Positions 24,178 to 35,346 of a DNA stretch of 64,000 nucleotides are shown one piece after another. The stretch covers positions 496,001 through 560,000 of the forward strand of contig CATKHK010000007.1 of NCBI GenBank assembly GCA_949751835.1, in the 5' to 3' direction. The notes under the pieces are model-generated. The model worked only from the letters and a program-made list of their open reading frames with translations. It had not been told where the DNA came from and ran no database searches. The stretch's first letter is position 1; each line of letters opens with the position of its first letter. This DNA comes from Blepharisma japonicum (lineage: Eukaryota; Ciliophora; Heterotrichea; Heterotrichida; Blepharismidae). The translations under genes and the position numbers were made by a program.

Positions 24178-26967
24178 TTAAATAAATTCATATAATGAAC
24201 TAATGATTTCAGTATTTAATTTTTCACTATTTGATCTATCAGTTGATTGATAAAATATCCTATTTGCATCATCAATAGATTCACATTTAAATAAAAGTTT
24301 AGCTAATAATGAAGCTATTCGAGTATAAGCTGCATCATCCTCGCATATTAATGAAAATATAGAATAAGAATTTTGAAAAGAAGTTACTGATTCTTTAATA
24401 CGGTTCAGTTTGTCAAATAGAAATCCAAGTTTTACATAAATTTTCCCGACATACGCATGATTTGATCCCAGTGAAATTGTTGAGATTTGTAATATACTAT
24501 TTAGCAATAAAATTGCATCCTCATAATGTTCACTTTCTATATAAATATCCGCCATAATTTCGTCAATAAAAAATCCTAATGGATGATATTTATTGAAATT
24601 GAATGAAATGGTTTCTTTACACATTTCATAGCATTTTACCATTTTTTCTTTCTCATTTGCATAGAAATATGCAACTAAAAGAACACCTAAATACCGAATT
24701 TTATTAATTTCAAAATTTTTTATTGGTGATGATTTTGCTTCAAAATAATTTATACATATATCAATGCTGTGGAAGTGTTTAATATAAACTGAGAGTTCTT
24801 TGAATGTAAAATTTTCAATTTTTGGATCATAATCATTTTCTGATTGATATTTTCGTTTTAAAGTCTTGAAGTCATATATTTTGGATTTTTTTGTGAATTT
24901 AATAAAATCATCAATTGTAAAAATTTTATAAATAGCGTCTAATTTTTGATAAGAGGAAAGTTTCATTTCAACTCCACAATGATTGAGAATTTGCACATAA
25001 AGCATTTTTAAATTTAATTTTTGTTTTTGTAAGTATTCTGAAGGTATATTGAAATGATTTTCAGCATATTCACATATAGTATCATTTCAAAAATTAGTGC
25101 ATTCTTCATTATTTCCAAAAATCAAATTTAGATAATTTAGAAACAAAAGGGTAATGCTATTTGTTCTTGAAGTTTTACCTTTATTAATTATTGGAATACT
25201 ATTTGACTCTACTATATCTCATGAAGGCATCATAAAATTCTCAAAAGTCTGATAGTGATCTATATCAATTTCTTTTAATAAATCTGAATAATCTTCTGAA
25301 CTCTGTGATTTTATTCATTTTATAGCATAGTCATAAGCTTCAGTATCTAGAGTTTCTTCAGGAGCCATAAAATAACTTTTTCTTATTTCTTTTCTAAATA
25401 AATTTTTAGTAGTCCTTCCCAATATATTAATAATGCACAATTCTCTTATATGTGGCATTTTAGTACTAATTGCTATTTTTCCTAGAAAATTTAGTTTTAT
25501 CTCTTTTTCGTGGAGGATATTTTCTAATGACTGTGAGTCTATTGGCATGAGCTTTATTTTATCAAAATCAATGATTAATTTTGAAAATTTCTTATCTATT
25601 TTCATAGCTTTTTGTGTTTTATCATTGCAATTTGATAACATTTTATGTAAATTTATAATATAAAGCAACTCTCCAGGAGGGTCTTTTTGTATTTCTTTTT
25701 GGTTTATGGCCAAATAATTTTCATAGTTCTCATATCCACTGCTTTGATGGACTTGAAAAGTTGCTGAATTCTTATCAAAGCCTTCAGAAAGTCCTAATTC
25801 ATTTAATATTAAATGGACTTGCTCATTTACGAATGATGAGGAGTAAAATTTTCCATCAACTGATCTTCCATATAATAAGCATTCTTCATTATAAAGAGGT
25901 GGAGAAGCTATTAATAAAATTCTGTATCCTTTATAGTCTACTAAGCAAGATAGCGGGCATCTTATATCGAAGTCCCCATTTTTGGAAATCAGCTTAGATA
26001 TATAATTTGTCATTTTATTGCAAGCTTTATGCTCATTTTTTAGTATTTTATATGTCTCTTCACTATTTTCTACAAAACAAACTATTTTGTTTATTATATA
26101 AATTGGTATAGAGAAATTTTCCAATGGCTTGAGTTTCTTATTATTTGTGATTTCTTCGACGATAAATTTGGCAACTTTTCTCCCTAATTTTTCAAAATAA
26201 TCAATAAATGGAATAAATATTTCTCTATAGCTCTCTTCAATAAATATACTTTTAATTCACAGTGTTTGATATTGGTAGTCTATTTCGCTTTCTAGCTTTA
26301 TATTTTCTTCAGATTTTTGCAACTCAAATGAATCTTCTTTTTTTTCTGCAATCATTTCTTCTTGAACTTGACTAACTTCAATAATAATTTCTTCAGAATT
26401 ATCTTCAGGCTGGCAAATTTCAGCAATGTCATTTTGCTTTTGTACAGAAGAATCGCTGTCTAGATCTATATTGCATTCAAAAATATTTGATACACTTTCA
26501 GAGCTGGAGCTTTCTTTGTGCGATTTAACCAATTTTTCATCTGGATTAATCTTTTTTTCGTACTCTTTCGCAGTGTTTAAGCATTTTAATCATGTATTTA
26601 ATGATAAGTCGCTGCTTACAGCAAAAATTCATATGATTTCTTTACCATTCCTATAGAAGCATATCTGAAATGCAAAAGGCTTATTTTTCTTTTTGCAAAA
26701 GTTATCATCAGCTTTGGAGACTTCACAGTTTTGGATTTTTTCATATTCCTTTGGAATTGAAATTTCTTTATTCGATGAGTCAAAGTAGATTAAATCTCTA
26801 GGCTTCTTATTATAATAAGAAATAAATCCATGCTTCAGAACTAGATATCTCTTGTTTCATCTTCATTTCCTTTTGGAAAGTTTTAAAACATAGCCTTCTA
26901 CAGAGGAATCAGTATTAAGAATGCAGCTCTGAGAATGAGCTAAACTTTGAAATTCATTTTTATCCAT
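24178..26967 (-). CDS. PH domain, CLU-like and TPR protein (929 aa)
   Basis: Single exon from ATG 26967 to TAA 24178-24180, with many TGA as Trp. Residues 20-130 fit a PH domain (EGYVLKLSKRKWRWNKRYLVL, ending WLKCLNTAKEYE). An acidic linker follows. Residues about 290-560 show landmarks of the CLU (clustered mitochondria) domain: LVDYKGYRILLIASPPL, LLYGRSVDG, GELLYIINLHKML and MPHIRELCIINILGRTTKNLFR. C-terminal TPR-like repeats resemble CLU and kinesin light chain (SNHAYVGKIYVKLGFLFDKL). CLU proteins bind mRNAs of mitochondrial proteins; here a PH domain suggests a membrane link. The CLU call is from motif memory. Confidence 0.7.
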
Positions 26968-27139: not shown

Positions 27140-27574
27140 ATGAAGCGAACGAAAGAAAATTGGCTCCACGGACACCCAGAAGACCGTAATGGGATCTCAG
27201 GATGCCGCATCTTTGATGGTGAAGACTTGCATTACCAAGAGCGTAAAAAAGCCCAGCAGGAGACTCAAAGAAGATGGATCGAAGAGCAAAAAAGACAGAA
27301 TGAAGAAAAAAAGCGCCAGGAAGAAGAGGAAGAAAGACAATATGCCTTTCAAACTCAGCAAGCCAACAGGATGAGAGGACTCCTTGAAGACGAACTTGAA
27401 AGCAAGAAAAGAATGATGCAGGCATCAACAAGGGATGCAAACCTTCAATTAAGCCGAGAAAAGAAAGAGAAGGAAAGATACGAGAAAAACTCGAAGTTGA
27501 GAGAAGAAGACCAAGACTTATTGGAGCAGAAAACGATTAGACAGGTGCCACCTTACGTGAACCCACTTGACTAA
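27140..27574 (+). CDS. RIBC: RIB43A-type doublet microtubule protein, short form (144 aa)
   Basis: Intact exon. The stretch GISGCRIFDGEDLHYQERKKAQQE followed by QRRWIEEQKRQNEEKKRQEEEE matches the central helix of RIB43A, a filamentous inner-junction/ribbon protein of ciliary doublet microtubules, and it ends with a proline motif (VPPYVNP). At 144 residues it is far shorter than the roughly 380 residues of animal RIBC1/2 and lacks the N-terminal third. Ciliates are known to have short and long RIB43A forms, and this fits the short one. TGG is used for all Trp. Confidence 0.75.
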   Translation: MKRTKENWLHGHPEDRNGISGCRIFDGEDLHYQERKKAQQETQRRWIEEQKRQNEEKKRQEEEEERQYAFQTQQANRMRGLLEDELESKKRMMQASTRDANLQLSREKKEKERYEKNSKLREEDQDLLEQKTIRQVPPYVNPLD

Positions 27575-27701: not shown

Positions 27702-29369
27702 ATGGATGATCCTTTTACCCAAATACAAGAAGACCTAGACTATGCTGAGGTTGCAGCATACCATGCCATAGAAAGCATATACTCCCTAGGAGGCGAAATC
27801 CTCTATGATCACTATATTGACCAAAAATCAGTTTCCTTCGCATCTCAAAACCTTCAATCCGTCTTAGCAAACACATTAGAAGCCTATTTCATACGTCATG
27901 ATCTCGGTGAAACTGAAGCTTGGAAAGAAGACCAAGAGCCGGTTCCATGTAAAATAGACACCTGGGCACGAGCCTCAATCCCAGTCAAAAAAAAGATAAA
28001 AATGCCTTCAGTTGAGACGTCAAATCAACAACTGCCAGCTGACATGCGAAGTGTAAAAAGCTTCAGATCAAGCCGCTCTGTGTTTAACCAAGTAAGCAAG
28101 CTTAATAAAACTGTCAGAGGAATGCAAGGAGAAGTTATAGATGAAGTCAAAGGGCAGCCAATACCAATAGCACAAGATAAAGAAGACATCTCAGAGGAAG
28201 AAGAGCAAATGAGGCAAAGGAAAGAAAGGGAAATGAAAAGAAAAAAAGACGAAAAAGAAAGGATTAGGATGAGAAAAGAGGAAGAAGAGGAAAAAGAAAA
28301 AAAAATTGTAAGGGAAGCAGAAGATTTGAAACGTAAATTATTCACATATGACAGTAAAGGAAAAATTGTACTGGTTAATGCGATTAAATATGATACTATT
28401 CCACCAACCGCTATGATAATGAAATATACATTACCTGTGCCAGTAGTCGAAGAAAATAATTCGAAAGATCAGAAAAAGCCTAAAAAAGAGACAAAAGAAT
28501 TTTCTATTGTAAAAGCTAGAAAGCAAGCCCCAATTCAAGAGCAGGAATGAGTGAAAAATGTGACATCAGTGGCGCCACCTATCTTTGATACTATAAAATT
28601 AAATCCAGGTGTAACCGTAGTAGAAGGAAGTAGAACTAAATACCCAAACCATCAGTCATCGGAAAAGCTGAAAACTATGACAAGAAAAGAATATAGGACT
28701 CTTACAGATCAGCATATTCCTACAAACTATAAAGATATAGTAGATAATCCTAGAGACACTTATGATAGAAGATCTTCTCCACAAAGTAGTCAGGAATCTT
28801 TTAAACCAGGCAGCAATATACAAAGTAAAAGAGACTTACTAGAAAGCATCCCAGATTTTGATGAAGAAAACCACGAAGTTGAAGAGCTTACAGAAGAAGA
28901 CTCAATGGCAGAAAAACCTTCTGTAAAGATACCAAAGCCTGACACTCGGTCTAAAAAAGATAGAATTTTACAATATGGTCAATCTATTGAGGAAACAGAA
29001 GAAATGAACCCAGTTGAAAAATTCAATTTGTCAATATTAAGAAATAAGCAATGGGGAACAAATCCGCCATTTAAACAAGCTTTCGTTCCAGATAAAATCC
29101 CGAAAAAACACCCTAATTCAAAGGAAGCTTGGCAAATTTATGGAGATCAAATAAAGAAGCCTAAAGATGAGCCTTTTGCATCTATTCAAGAATTGTGGGA
29201 TAAGAAAAGTACATCACTTAAAAAGCCAAGAGATAGACCTTTTATTGAGAGGGTGGAGAAGAAAAAGAGGATGCCTCCTCCACCGTTTGGACAAACTATG
29301 GTCAATGCAATGCCAGATTCTGGACTTGCCGCTTCTGGATCTCATTTATCAGCATCGTTTAATTCATAA
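27702..29369 (+). CDS. C2orf81-like ciliary protein (555 aa)
   Basis: Single exon; the TGA at 28548-28550 is Trp. The N-terminal 110 residues show the C2orf81 pattern: a helical block (VAAYHAIESIYSLGGEILYD), VSFASQNLQSVLANTLEAYF, and the signature W-x-x-D-Q-E-P-V-P-C-K-I-D-T-W-A-R-A-S-I-P-V. A Glu/Lys/Arg-rich helix and a long disordered tail with scattered PP motifs follow. C2orf81 homologues occur in ciliated organisms; the molecular role is poorly known. Lies 127 bp downstream of the RIB43A gene on the same strand. Confidence 0.7.
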
Positions 29370-29637: not shown

Positions 29638-31416
29638 ATGTCACGTTATGATTTTTGGCAAGATGATAATTCCAGCAGCTTTAATTTTCCTCAAATTGAC
29701 ACTAGCCCTTCAGATACCTTTCTCAGGCACGCAACAGACTTGTTCAACACTCTCACTGAAGAAGAGGAGCAAATTACAAGATCTCTCCCAATATTAATTA
29801 GTCAGCATTCTTCAAGACAAGATCAAGTTGACCTAATTGAAGCTTATGCTTTAGAACTTAAAATAAGAAATCAAGAAAAAATAAATCTTTTGGATTCATT
29901 TTTATCACGTGAAAAAAGTCACAGCTTACAAGTTCGTCAATTAGAGCAGGAAATCAAAAAACTTAAAGAAGAAGCATCAGCTGCCAAAAATATGATTAAT
30001 AAAAGAATCAACAGGATCGCTGGCACATTGAACGCTACTGACGTCTATGACTGAATCGTGGACATAGGACTTATTACTGATATCAGTAAAAGTGGCTGGG
30101 AAGTTGAATTTTCTGAAAAATTCTGAAACTCATGAGGAAAACCGATGCAGAACCAAACTGACAGTAAAGGGGAAGTGATAGTAAAAAATGAATCTGCTAT
30201 AAAAAATGATGCTGGAAATACTTCTTGAGATGGAGCAGTTGTTTCTGTAGTAGGACTCTATGATAAAGGTAAAACATTTCTGCTGAATAATTTAACAGAT
30301 TCTTACTTGCCATCAGGAAAGAAAGTAAATACAAGGGGTCTTTCTTTTAAGCATGTTCAAATGGACACAGGCACTAATTTAATTTTACTTGACACTGCAG
30401 GGTCTTACTCTCCTGTAAAGGTCCTAAACGAGTTTTCTGTTGCAGAAAAAGAAGCAACCGAGCTATTTATCCTTGATATGGTTTTTGAAATTTCTGACTA
30501 TTTTATATGTGTTGTCAATGATTTCACCTCTCTTGATCAAAGATTTTTAGACAAAATAACTAGAAGTCTGCAAAACTCAAGCACAAAAATATTCAGAGAA
30601 GTGATTGTAGTTCACAATCTTAAAGATGTTGAAGATGAAAACGTTATTAGCCATATATGGGAAACTCAGGTGACTCAGATTTATGGATCTGGGAGTACTC
30701 AAAGTACCAAAGTTGCTGCAAATTCTCCAGAGTCTAATGAATTGGTTGAGAAGAGTGTAAGCTGGTTTAAGACTGATTACTCACGACATGTGTGCCTCGC
30801 AAATGCTGACTCAGAAATTGGGCAAAAACTAAACCCTTGGACATTTTCATTATTAAAATATTGACTTAAGGCTGTTTTTGTGCCTGTAAATAGGCCCTTA
30901 TCAGTTGTTGAAACAGTAGTATCTATAATAAAATCCAAGCTTTCTTCTTATTTTAAAACCCCTGTAGAAATTGAGCTAACAAACGGCCAAAACCCTCTGA
31001 AAAAAATAATTATATGCAAAAACATGTCTCAATCAGAAAGTCTTCGACTCCCCCAGTTTTCAATGGACTCAAGCGGCTTTATAATTTCTCGTCCAGACAG
31101 TTTTATCCCTGCAGTTGACATCATTCAAGACTCAGCCTATAAGATCTACATGGACATTTCTGGCCTCTCCAAAGAAGACATCCTCCTTACACGTCAAAAT
31201 GTCCTCACCGTCGTTCAAGGTCGGCGCAAGAAGCCCAACCTCAGCAGCCCAGAAAATGCCAGAGTAATAAAACAAGAGCGAAAATATGGAGATTTCGCCA
31301 TCAGTTTTAAAATTCCTGAACAATATGAAAGAAGATGGAACTCGTTTGAAGTAAAAGATGGAGTCTTAATGATTACCTATAATAAAGACGAAGATGAAAT
31401 AAGTAAAATGCAATAA
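29638..31416 (+). CDS. P-loop GTPase-like protein fused to an HSP20 domain (592 aa)
   Basis: Single exon read through several TGA (Trp). Residues 1-135 are a helical N-terminus with a coiled coil (LRQLEQEIKKLKEEAS type). Residues 200-400 are a GTPase-like core: G1 GLYDKGKTF (206-214), a Thr in TRGLSF for G2 (232), G3 DTAG (252-255) and a G4-like HNLKD (326-330), closest in style to dynamin/guanylate-binding GTPases. The last 110 residues are a small heat-shock (alpha-crystallin) domain: YKIYMDISGLSKEDILLTRQ, VIKQERKYGDFAISFKIP and the closing VKDGVLMITY. The fusion is in one uninterrupted frame. Probably a GTP-dependent chaperone or membrane-stress protein (inference). Confidence 0.75.
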
Positions 31417-32700: not shown

Positions 32701-35346
32701 TTAAGATTTTCTTATGAATTGTAGGTTAATTGTTTTCCTGAAATTCTGAAAAGTGATATCAACATGAACTGCGATATGGTCATAAAGACTAATTTTTTGA
32801 TTCTCAACAACTATTGATCTTGAGTCATATTCACTGGCATTAGGTAGCTCAACCTCCCCTTCTAGCCCAATTTTTGGAATCATCACATCAACTCCATTCG
32901 GTAAAATTTCAGTAACGATTGCATCATATTCAATTGCTTCTTTACGTCCCTTAAACACAAGATATGTATGCAAATTGGCTGAAGTCCTTTCAGAATACTG
33001 TGACATGCGATTCCTAAAATTCATTCTTCTACAAATTTTCCCCATTTCTCTTCTGTCAGTCATTTTTTCAGGTAGAGATTTCACGTCAATAGCTGCTGCC
33101 AGCAGTCTGTGGACTAAAATATCTGCATATCTTCTAATTGGGCTAGTAAAATGTGTGTAGATTTCAGCTGCAAGCCCATAATGGTAATACTCATGCCTAT
33201 CAACTTCAGAAGAACAAAAATAAACAGCCTGATTCATACACCTAGTTACCTGCATCCTTATTATTGTATTAAAATAAGGGTCATTTTGCCTTATAATTCT
33301 GTTTAACGAATCTGCAAGAGTTAAAGAAGAATCATAATTGAGTGGGTAGCCTAGATATTCCAGTTTTTCTGCAAGCTTTTTTAAGTCATCCAGCTTTGGA
33401 GATGGATGTCTACGTAGGATAGAATATGCAGGATATGCTTCACATATTTTGTCAGCAACTGCAATATTTGCGAGAAGCATAAATTCTTCGACCATACTAT
33501 TGGTTTCGAATGTCTTGTAAAGTGCCATATCTTTGGCTTTGAGCTTGTCTGTATCTAATTCAAATTTAACTTCAGCGCTGGCTAGCTCTAGAGCTCCAGC
33601 CACAATTCTTTGCTTTTTCAGGTGTTTTGATATATCTAGCAGTTTTCTTAACGAAAATGACATCTCATCATTTACTTTAGAATCAATGATTTCTTGTGCT
33701 TTTTGGTATGAAAGAGATGCCCGGGAGTGTATTAAGCTTTTACAGAAAGAAGTCTTTTTGATTTCATATGTTTTTGGGTCAAGCTCCCACAGGACTGAAA
33801 ATGCTAATCTATCTTGATTACAGACCAAACTGCAAAGGACTTCTGTAAGTATTCCTGGCAACATATCAGTTCTTCTTTCAACTAAATATACCGTCGTACA
33901 TCTTTCAGAAGCTTCTAAATCAAGAGCAGACTCAGGCAACACAAAATGAGTGACATCAGCTATGTGAACTCCTACTTCAAGATTCCCATTGGGAAGAACT
34001 TTACAATGGAGAGCATCATCAATATCTTTACACCCTGGAGGATCAACACTGGCAACACATCGGTCTCTTAAATCGGTTCTTCTATCAATTTCTTCTTGTG
34101 ACAAAACCCAGTCACGTGGAGGTAAACAATTTAAAGCAGCTTGTGTGAAAGGCTTGATTACGACATCATGCTCCAATAAGATTACATCACTTTCAGTTTT
34201 TACGTCTTCAATTTCTCCTAATATTTTGACTACGTGTCCTTGAGGCAGGTTACTTGAGATATCCCATTTGTCGATGGACACAGTAATTCTCATCCCTTCT
34301 AATCTTGAAGGATTTGCACAGTAAATTTTTATTTCCGGCAGCTTGGGGTTCACTGGAGAAAACAAACATTGTTCTCTATTATCAATAAAAATGCCAGTTC
34401 TTCTTATACTGCCACAATATGATTTTTGCTTATTTTTAAGGATAGACACAACTCTGCCTTCTCTATGTGGTTTTTCTTCAACATTTGTGACTTTAATATT
34501 GACTACATCTACTCCTTCTACCTCTTCTAGATGATCGAGTTTTTCTTCAATATCCATTGGCTCATTAAGCACTTCAATTGCTACTACATCTCCATCAATT
34601 GATCTATTCATATTTTCAATTCCTTTTATTGCCACATCAAATGATTGGCCCACATTTCTATTTACCCTAATCCAAGCACTATCAGGGGAATTTCTATAAA
34701 CATGTAAAACACCTTCAAATAGTGATCCTTCTTTAATCATTTTTTCAGCTTGAATTGGGTCAATATGCTCACTGAAAATAGGGTTAATTGCAGGCTCATC
34801 TACAGGGAACATATCAGCTAATATTGTGTTTTGTACAATTTCTTCAAGCTTGATACATTTTCCACCACTTCTCAATGAAATAACTTTAATATTGACTTGT
34901 GGAAGATGAAAACTTAGCCATTCTGCAGTTTTGATAGCAGATAAATATTCTCTGTCTTTTGTTCCTTGTGGAATATATGTTTCTGCTCTATGCTCGTTAA
35001 GAAAGACGTGAAAATGATTTTCATCGATAAATGTTTTGACTCGCTTATATAAATTTTGATCTTTTACTTTAAGCTCTAATAAAGTAGACTGGAGGAAAAG
35101 GGTATTTGTGTTGGTTAGAATTGGGCATTGATATTGCTCTTCAAGGACTGTTATGTGAGATGTTAAAGCTTCTAAATCGAAAAAATAAAGATTTGTGTCT
35201 GAAAGAGGAGCATGCATTAAATTACTGCAGTGAATGCATGATGAGTATCCACAAGGGACATCGTGCCTTAAGTAATGCTGCTTTATGCTACTAAAGATAT
35301 TGCCTCTTCTGGTTTTCTTTGGAGTAGAGATCACTACAGGTTCCAT
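32701..35346 (-). CDS. DIS3/DIS3L-type exosome exoribonuclease (881 aa)
   Basis: Intact exon, all Trp codons TGG. N-terminal CR3 motif (HYLRHDVPCGYSSCIHC) and a PIN-like domain (about 50-190) are followed by cold-shock folds, an RNB domain and an S1 end. The RNB active site is whole: SVDPPGCKDIDDALH (about 435-449) with the Asp cluster, NGNLEVGVHIADVTHF and HFTSPIRRYADILVHRL. In the PIN domain the first Asp (YFFDLEAL) and the Glu (LLELK) are kept, but the late TND motif is replaced by SLRSGGK, so endonuclease activity is doubtful, as in metazoan DIS3L. Predicted 3'-5' RNA decay enzyme. Confidence 0.93.
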   Translation of the reverse strand: MEPVVISTPKKTRRGNIFSSIKQHYLRHDVPCGYSSCIHCSNLMHAPLSDTNLYFFDLEALTSHITVLEEQYQCPILTNTNTLFLQSTLLELKVKDQNLYKRVKTFIDENHFHVFLNEHRAETYIPQGTKDREYLSAIKTAEWLSFHLPQVNIKVISLRSGGKCIKLEEIVQNTILADMFPVDEPAINPIFSEHIDPIQAEKMIKEGSLFEGVLHVYRNSPDSAWIRVNRNVGQSFDVAIKGIENMNRSIDGDVVAIEVLNEPMDIEEKLDHLEEVEGVDVVNIKVTNVEEKPHREGRVVSILKNKQKSYCGSIRRTGIFIDNREQCLFSPVNPKLPEIKIYCANPSRLEGMRITVSIDKWDISSNLPQGHVVKILGEIEDVKTESDVILLEHDVVIKPFTQAALNCLPPRDWVLSQEEIDRRTDLRDRCVASVDPPGCKDIDDALHCKVLPNGNLEVGVHIADVTHFVLPESALDLEASERCTTVYLVERRTDMLPGILTEVLCSLVCNQDRLAFSVLWELDPKTYEIKKTSFCKSLIHSRASLSYQKAQEIIDSKVNDEMSFSLRKLLDISKHLKKQRIVAGALELASAEVKFELDTDKLKAKDMALYKTFETNSMVEEFMLLANIAVADKICEAYPAYSILRRHPSPKLDDLKKLAEKLEYLGYPLNYDSSLTLADSLNRIIRQNDPYFNTIIRMQVTRCMNQAVYFCSSEVDRHEYYHYGLAAEIYTHFTSPIRRYADILVHRLLAAAIDVKSLPEKMTDRREMGKICRRMNFRNRMSQYSERTSANLHTYLVFKGRKEAIEYDAIVTEILPNGVDVMIPKIGLEGEVELPNASEYDSRSIVVENQKISLYDHIAVHVDITFQNFRKTINLQFIRKS

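What the first reader, a model, noticed from the sequence alone, without database searches (positions are those of the whole stretch)
29638..31416. GTPase domain fused to a small heat-shock (HSP20) domain
One open frame joins a coiled-coil N-terminus, a P-loop GTPase-like core (GLYDKGKTF, DTAG, HNLKD) and a C-terminal alpha-crystallin domain. I know of no standard family with this order. A nucleotide-switched chaperone or membrane-remodelling stress protein would be new. The fusion is seen; the function is inference.
Basis: partly seen in the sequence, partly recalled or inferred. Interest (0 to 1): 0.7.

Follow-up and report, generated by a model that had tools for sequence, protein, structure and literature searches.

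The report
GTPase fused to small heat-shock domain
A Blepharisma-like ciliate carries a seven-gene family in which a GTP-binding switch domain is joined to a small heat-shock (chaperone) domain in one protein, and these are the only clear small heat-shock domains found in its genome, which suggests a chaperone controlled by GTP.

Summary
The fusion is real. Window 29638-31416 (+) is one 592-codon frame (TGA as Trp): a G domain (aa ~197-439) followed by an alpha-crystallin/HSP20 domain (aa 497-588, Pfam E 1.7e-10). It is one of seven paralogues in this genome; all seven keep the order G domain - linker - HSP20 in one unbroken frame, and both domains show purifying selection. TGA and TGG interchange at conserved Trp columns. 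Genetic code, 15-nt introns and CCCTAACA telomeres place the genome with Blepharisma. PF00011 at E<=10 finds no HSP20 domain outside the family; a second sHSP model adds one weak hit (E 0.43).

The first ~100 residues of the G domain resemble guanylate-binding proteins, but the P-loop Arg, DxEG, RD motif and helical C-terminus are missing, so it is not filed as a GBP. No GTPase-sHSP fusion appeared in the paper listings seen. Eukaryotic sequence collections could not be searched, so novelty across ciliates is untested.

Most likely a GTP-gated sHSP: ACD pairing brings G domains together and the nucleotide cycle controls assembly or client binding (inference). A membrane-remodelling role has little sequence support.

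The parts
29638..31416 (+). whole gene: single open frame, 592 aa with TGA=Trp, stop TAA
29638..30045 (+). N-terminal region aa 1-136, possibly coiled coil; shared only with the C103 paralogue
   Evidence: heptad test; alignment
30046..30225 (+). aa 137-196: conserved lead-in (YDxIVDIGLI..DI...GW) plus a variable spacer before the G domain
   Evidence: invariant columns in A1
30226..30954 (+). G domain region, aa 197-439
   Evidence: Pfam GBP and MMR_HSR1 in 7 of 7 paralogues at E<=0.1; A3
30253..30276 (+). G1/P-loop GLYDKGKT, aa 206-213, identical in 7 of 7
30331..30333 (+). G2/switch I Thr232, invariant in 7 of 7
30391..30402 (+). G3 DTAG, aa 252-255, identical in 7 of 7
30613..30627 (+). 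G4-like HNLKD, aa 326-330 (HN[LF]KD in 7 of 7; N and D at the N-x-x-D spacing)
30955..31068 (+). linker aa 440-477, inside one open frame in all seven paralogues
31069..31413 (+). C-terminal region aa 478-592 with the HSP20/alpha-crystallin domain (Pfam stretch aa 497-588 = 31126-31401); GVLMI motif, no I-x-I tail
   Evidence: Pfam; PDB profile
30052..30054 (+). TGA read as Trp139 (TGA in the C103 paralogue, Cys in the other five)
30226..30228 (+). TGA read as Trp197; Trp in 7 of 7, by TGA or TGG
30862..30864 (+). TGA read as Trp409, late in the G domain region and before HSP20; Trp in 7 of 7, by TGA or TGG

Best explanation
A Blepharisma-type family of GTPase-tethered small heat-shock proteins. 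Shown: one continuous gene joins a TRAFAC-type G domain to a C-terminal alpha-crystallin domain, and the arrangement is conserved in seven paralogues under purifying selection. Inferred: the alpha-crystallin domain, which aligns best with bacterial and plant sHSPs, pairs subunits and/or holds unfolded clients. The G domain stands where an sHSP would have its N-terminal arm. GTP binding and hydrolysis switch G-domain pairing or posture and so control higher assembly and client hold/release: a GTP-gated version of the normally nucleotide-independent sHSP cycle.
For: HSP20 matches in 7 of 7 (Pfam best 8.6e-12), with a PDB profile hit of 1.1e-10 to a Xanthomonas sHSP, then plant sHSPs. G1, G2 Thr and G3 are identical and the G4-like HN[LF]KD is kept in 7 of 7. 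No in-frame TAA/TAG between the domains in any of the seven. TGA/TGG exchange at Trp columns 197 and 409. dN/dS in the six least saturated of 21 pairs: 0.13-0.17 for the G domain, 0.09-0.35 for HSP20. With PF00011 at E<=10, the 7 HSP20 matches found in the genome are these genes, so they may be the cell's sHSP complement. No CaaX in any of the seven and no hydrophobic stretch outside the G domain above 1.5.
Against: No functional, expression or structural data. No full (9/9) three-unit heat-shock element upstream of any of 7 genes; 8/9 matches in 2 of 7, against 0.07-0.16 expected per gene by shuffling. No C-terminal I-x-I motif, so oligomerisation cannot be of the classical kind. The G4 motif is N-x-K-D rather than N-K-x-D, so nucleotide specificity is unproven. 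AlphaFold on single sequences was uninformative for the core (pLDDT 33) and weak for HSP20 (53; no Foldseek match at E<=0.001, best 0.012 with TM-scores below 0.5). NF042420 adds one weak untethered-looking match in the genome (E 0.43). A P-loop ATPase with a C-terminal alpha-crystallin domain, Get3d, binds its clients without that domain (passages of PMC10248533).
Confidence: 0.42

Rival explanations
1. The GTPase is the working part: a GBP-like assembly GTPase that acts on membranes, organelles or intracellular bacteria, with the alpha-crystallin domain serving only to dimerise or as an adaptor.
For: The first ~100 residues of the G domain resemble GBP (profile-profile E 7.7e-8 to eight GBPs of the same genome; PDB GBP5 E 2.8e-4). 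Three of the 16 strong GBP matches in this genome also lack the P-loop Arg and DxEG (L032-L034), so divergent GBPs exist. Five copies in tandem on C102, the kind of expansion seen in defence families (recalled). Conservation is highest in the G domain (A3 mean column identity 82%, A4 70%).
Against: No CaaX, no GBP helical C-terminus, no stalk domain recognised. The most hydrophobic 19-residue windows score 1.04-1.60; the single one at 1.60 is aa 276-294 inside the window protein's G domain. The GBP P-loop Arg, DTEG and RD motifs are absent.
Confidence: 0.2
2. The HSP20 domain works as a CS/p23-like docking module that links the GTPase to Hsp90/Hsp70 machinery or to a specific partner; there is no general chaperone function.
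For: Get3d precedent: its alpha-crystallin domain lacks oligomerisation features and is not needed for client binding (passages). No I-x-I tail here.
Against: The domain matches HSP20 and not CS in Pfam. The same genome has at least 12 CS-domain matches, so that role may be filled by others. No stand-alone sHSP was found with PF00011 to supply the general function.
Confidence: 0.25
3. A degenerate G domain: the protein is an ordinary sHSP with an inert P-loop scaffold as its N-terminal arm.
For: Non-canonical G4 (HNLKD); the GBP P-loop Arg and the Ser before the switch I HT are not kept (alignment; their catalytic roles recalled).
Against: G1, G2 Thr, G3 and the G4 Asn/Asp are invariant in 7 of 7; dN/dS 0.13-0.17 in the six least saturated pairs.
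Confidence: 0.1
4. Artefact: two adjacent genes run together by reading TGA as Trp or by an assembly join.
For: Five TGA codons lie in the frame, three of them at positions that are not Trp in the five tandem paralogues.
Against: The same join in seven paralogues on 3 contigs; TGA at Trp197 and Trp409 sits in columns that paralogues write as TGG; no TGA lies after Trp409; the genome has the Blepharisma hallmarks in which UGA is Trp.
Confidence: 0.02

Closest known systems
Small heat-shock proteins of bacterial/plant type (Xanthomonas 3gt6/3gla, plant 25.3 kDa chloroplast and 17.1 kDa class II)
   Same: alpha-crystallin domain over nearly its whole length, ER.yG.F and GVL-like motifs
   Different: 592 aa instead of a short chain; a G domain replaces the N-terminal arm; no C-terminal I-x-I motif
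Guanylate-binding proteins (GB1-type dynamin-related GTPases)
   Same: IVGLY..GK[ST] P-loop, [HN]T.G switch I and LLDT.G over the first ~100 residues
   Different: Asp for the P-loop Arg, DTAG for DTEG, HN[LF]KD for the RD motif, no helical C-terminal domain
Get3d (ArsA/Get3 ATPase with C-terminal alpha-crystallin domain)
   Same: P-loop NTPase with an alpha-crystallin domain at the C-terminus (passages of PMC10248533)
   Different: Get3/ArsA ATPase (SIMIBI class, recalled) rather than a TRAFAC-type GTPase; ArsA_HSP20 (PF17886) finds nothing in this genome at E<=1; described from land plants and photosynthetic bacteria
Era/MMR_HSR1-type GTPases
   Same: MMR_HSR1 matches 7 of 7 (best 2.6e-8)
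   Different: no KH domain or other Era/Der accessory domain among the Pfam hits; atypical G4

Membership tests
small heat-shock protein (HSP20) | alpha-crystallin domain above curated threshold | tested here: met
   41.3 bits against a cut-off of 20.8; 7 of 7 paralogues over the cut-off
small heat-shock protein (HSP20) | short chain whose N-terminal arm precedes the ACD | tested here: not met
   592 aa, with a G domain in place of the arm
small heat-shock protein (HSP20) | C-terminal I-x-I/V motif | tested here: not met
   none after the GVL-like motif in 7 of 7
small heat-shock protein (HSP20) | ATP-independent holdase activity | not testable with these tools
   needs purified protein
small heat-shock protein (HSP20) | heat-inducible promoter with heat-shock elements | tested here: inconclusive
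   no 9/9 three-unit element in the 350 bp upstream of 7 of 7 genes; one 8/9 match in each of 2; start codons were chosen by me and the ciliate element may differ
GBP | full-length GBP G domain (PF02263) | tested here: inconclusive
   7 of 7 above cut-off, but the listed matches lie within profile positions 20-97 of 264; the 16 strong GBP matches of this genome cover most of the profile
GBP | P-loop arginine (xxRxGKS) | tested here: not met
   GLYDKGKT in 7 of 7; Arg in 13 of the 16 strong GBP matches of this genome, absent in L032-L034; R28 invariant in the 8 of those 16 that I aligned
GBP | switch II DxEG | tested here: not met
   DTAG in 7 of 7; DxEG in 13 of 16 strong GBP matches, not in L032-L034
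GBP | guanine motif RD (TxRD/LRD) | tested here: not met
   HN[LF]KD in 7 of 7; R157-D158 invariant in the 8 GBPs aligned of 16; the other 8 were not looked at for this
GBP | helical C-terminal GBP domain | tested here: not met
   HSP20 instead; no GBP C-terminal family among the Pfam hits
dynamin superfamily (DLP/IRG) | Dynamin_N or IRG G domain above cut-off | tested here: not met
   Dynamin_N E 0.13, 12.7 bits against 27 for the window protein; weak in 6 of 7 members, best E 0.015; IRG not listed
Get3d | ArsA/Get3 ATPase domain and ArsA_HSP20 (PF17886) | tested here: not met
   no ArsA match in the protein; PF17886 not found in the genome at E<=1

The most novel reading that the evidence does not exclude
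In this ciliate lineage the free small heat-shock proteins have been replaced wholesale by a GTPase-tethered form, so the whole sHSP layer of protein quality control is under GTP control: a nucleotide-switched sHSP, unlike the nucleotide-independent sHSPs known elsewhere.
Probability: 0.25. Interest if true: 0.82.

Novelty: new variant of a known kind. Interest (0 to 1): 0.56.

Why it matters
sHSPs are regarded as nucleotide-independent holdases (recalled). A conserved family that puts a GTPase switch on the same chain would be a natural experiment in coupling energy to sHSP assembly and release, and is directly testable with purified protein. That no clear untethered HSP20 gene was found in this genome makes it sharper: either the fusion took over the sHSP role or the cell does without one.

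Tried and rejected
Artefact of TGA reading or a gene join: rejected on seven paralogues, TGA/TGG exchange and purifying selection.

Hidden 15-16 nt introns in the window gene: 6 GT..AG strings of 15 nt and 10 of 16 nt occur in it. None breaks the frame, which is open. The most intron-like of the 15-mers (starting GTA, at 30757 and 31264) encode residues 374-378 and 543-547, which align with conserved residues of the paralogues, so no intron is needed; splicing was not tested by RNA.

Dynamin/IRG membership: rejected. GBP membership: not filed, several defining motifs absent, with the caveat that 3 of 16 strong GBP matches in this genome also lack two of them.

Relatives in viral and GTDB contigs: pattern hits (72 and 80) but none confirmed. 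A further own-genome match (C39:147414-147830, E 5.6e-4) has an HflX-like sequence by eye (recalled), not a sibling; two others at E 0.21 and 2.28 were not followed. Heat-shock elements: none convincing. Leftover copy in the C102 gap 41.3-44.15 kb: only the N-terminus of the neighbouring member C102a.

Structure prediction by single sequence: too poor for the core. HSP20 alone gave pLDDT 53 and no Foldseek match at E<=0.001, though the best 47 of the 50 rows shown are sHSPs/alpha-crystallins before the first CS-domain row. Paralogues from the genome search were not put into the structure jobs because the tool's stated list does not include them. The SSU rRNA search failed on the machine side and was not repeated.

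Papers: searches returned 0. One search listed 15 of 32, search 52 10 of 10 and search 72 15 of 26; these were read as titles and abstract starts only, and none was about such a fusion. One search (10 of 15 listed) was for the genome, search 48 (1 of 1) for Get3d. Passages were read in PMC9942806, PMC10248533 and PMC4082629 (nothing relevant).

Full report
Observation. Window 29638-31416 on the + strand is one open frame of 592 codons when TGA is read as Trp. With this composition about 32 TAA/TAG stops are expected in 592 codons and the chance of none is about 5e-15; the five other frames hold 13 to 36. Pfam finds HSP20 at aa 497-588 (E 1.7e-10), GBP at aa 200-257 (E 1.5e-5) and MMR_HSR1 at aa 202-307 (E 2.7e-5), each above its curated cut-off. 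The motifs are GLYDKGKT at 206, DTAG at 252 and HNLKD at 326.

Organism. The genome (45.2 Mb, 224 contigs) carries exact CCCTAACA arrays, including at the far end of the window's own contig C7 (77 forward and 91 reverse matches to a three-unit pattern, 0 in the control). The other ends that I read (180 bases each at the start of C102, the end of C103 and the start of C7) show none. Two paralogues have in-frame stops that fall inside exact 15-nt GT..AG strings. Blepharisma stoltei is described with UGA as Trp, predominantly 15 and 16 bp introns, 66% AT and telomeres that are permutations of CCCTAACA, in a 41 Mbp assembly (passages of PMC9942806). The window is therefore from Blepharisma or a close relative; the species was not determined (an SSU rRNA search failed).

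A family of seven. Searching the whole genome with the protein at E<=0.01 gives the window gene, one paralogue on C103 (two pieces: 75% over aa 189-587, 54% over aa 8-166) and five in tandem on C102 (48-59%). All seven have lead-in, G domain, linker and HSP20 in the same order in one frame, with no TAA/TAG between the domains. Of the seven, 7 match HSP20, 7 MMR_HSR1 and 7 GBP in Pfam at E<=0.1. The N-terminal helical region is shared only by the window and C103 genes; the five tandem genes have other N-termini.

The frame is read through. At conserved Trp columns the paralogues use TGA or TGG interchangeably (C7 residues 154, 197, 341, 376, 401, 409). Trp197 opens the G domain region and Trp409 lies late in it, before HSP20; both are Trp in 7 of 7. 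No TGA of the window gene lies after Trp409. The other three window TGA codons are less telling: Trp139 and Trp163 are shared only with C103 (Cys or Tyr in the five others), and Trp166 is Leu in the other six.

Selection. In the six comparisons among C102b, c, d and e, where synonymous change is least saturated, dN/dS is 0.13-0.17 for the G domain, 0.09-0.35 for HSP20 and 0.18-0.41 for the linker. Most of the other 15 pairs are near or beyond synonymous saturation and were not used for ratios. In the lead-in and spacer (aa 137-196) some of those pairs reach 0.75-0.99, so that stretch is loose.

The HSP20 half. The profile of the seven finds bacterial and plant sHSPs in the PDB, best a Xanthomonas sHSP at 1.1e-10. 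The GVL motif is kept as G[VIL]L.I, but the chain ends 8 to 13 residues later without any I-x-I. AlphaFold on this domain alone gave pLDDT 53. The best Foldseek rows are sHSPs at weak E-values (0.012 and up, none at E<=0.001, TM-scores below 0.5): consistent, not independent proof.

The HSP20 domains found are tethered. PF00011 finds exactly these seven places in the genome at E<=0.01 and at E<=10. A paralogue HSP20 domain as query at E<=10 finds the same seven. A second sHSP model, NF042420, finds the seven plus one weak hit in an 864-codon frame (E 0.43). PF17886 finds none at E<=1, while the related CS fold is found 12 times, so the search can find this fold class. Limits: only best first-look candidates are scored, a short gene broken by introns could be missed, and the assembly may be incomplete.

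The GTPase half. The family profile reaches GBPs in the PDB with only its first ~90 positions (best E 2.8e-4), then Era (best 0.014). Against eight GBPs of the same genome, chosen from 16 strong matches, the profile-profile E is 7.7e-8 over positions 4-110. It differs at the P-loop Arg and DxEG, which 13 of those 16 keep and three (L032-L034) lack, and at the RD motif, invariant in the eight aligned. It has no recognised GBP C-terminal domain. N327, K329 and D330 are invariant, giving N-x-K-D in place of N-K-x-D; guanine specificity is likely but unproven. No other close relative was found in the genome: beyond the seven, the best match is an HflX-like GTPase at 5.6e-4. No relatives were confirmed in the viral or GTDB collections.

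How it may work (inference). sHSPs pair through the alpha-crystallin domain and are not nucleotide-driven (recalled). Here the domain is on one chain with a conserved G domain. Pairing would hold two G domains together, and the nucleotide state could then set assembly or client release. No membrane anchor is evident: there is no CaaX, and the one 19-residue window that reaches 1.60 in hydropathy is inside the G domain. A membrane-remodelling role is therefore less likely. Upstream regions show no full heat-shock element, so stress induction is not supported by sequence. I put the fusion itself at about 0.97 and the GTP-gated chaperone mechanism at about 0.42.

Comparison. The nearest published parallel found is Get3d, a Get3/ArsA ATPase with a C-terminal alpha-crystallin domain, whose structure is known and whose alpha-crystallin domain is not needed for client binding (passages of PMC10248533). 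That is the same idea with a different NTPase class. None of the paper listings seen (some lists were cut) was about a GTPase-sHSP fusion, but they cover open-licence papers only, and database annotations of ciliate proteins could not be searched. The rating is therefore a new variant of known kinds.

Noticed in passing
window 24178-26967 (-): 929-aa frame combining a PH domain with CLU (clustered mitochondria), eIF3_p135-like and TPR matches; the PH-CLU combination looks unusual to me (recalled).
   Followed up: no
window 27140-27574 (+) and 27702-29369 (+): Neighbours with RIB43A and DUF4639 matches; the first probably ciliary (recalled).
   Followed up: no
window 32701-35346 (-): Exoribonuclease of RNB/DIS3 type, RNB E 3.7e-100.
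   Followed up: no
G000, 25 places: 16 strong GBP-type matches (E <= 1e-25) besides the seven fusions and two divergent ones; three of the 16 (L032-L034) lack the P-loop Arg and DxEG.
   Followed up: partly
L035 and L038 (C39:301516-301773 and C39:309230-309511): Two neighbouring frames of over 1000 aa with a GKQSSGKSYLLNRI P-loop, which remind me of very large inducible GTPases (recalled).
   Followed up: no
L009:6165-7706 (-), paralogue C102b: A stretch of about 29 residues before the G domain is duplicated head to tail.
   Followed up: no
G000:C38:61941-62099 (-): Weak partial sHSP-model match (E 0.43) in an 864-codon frame: possibly another multidomain alpha-crystallin protein.
   Followed up: no
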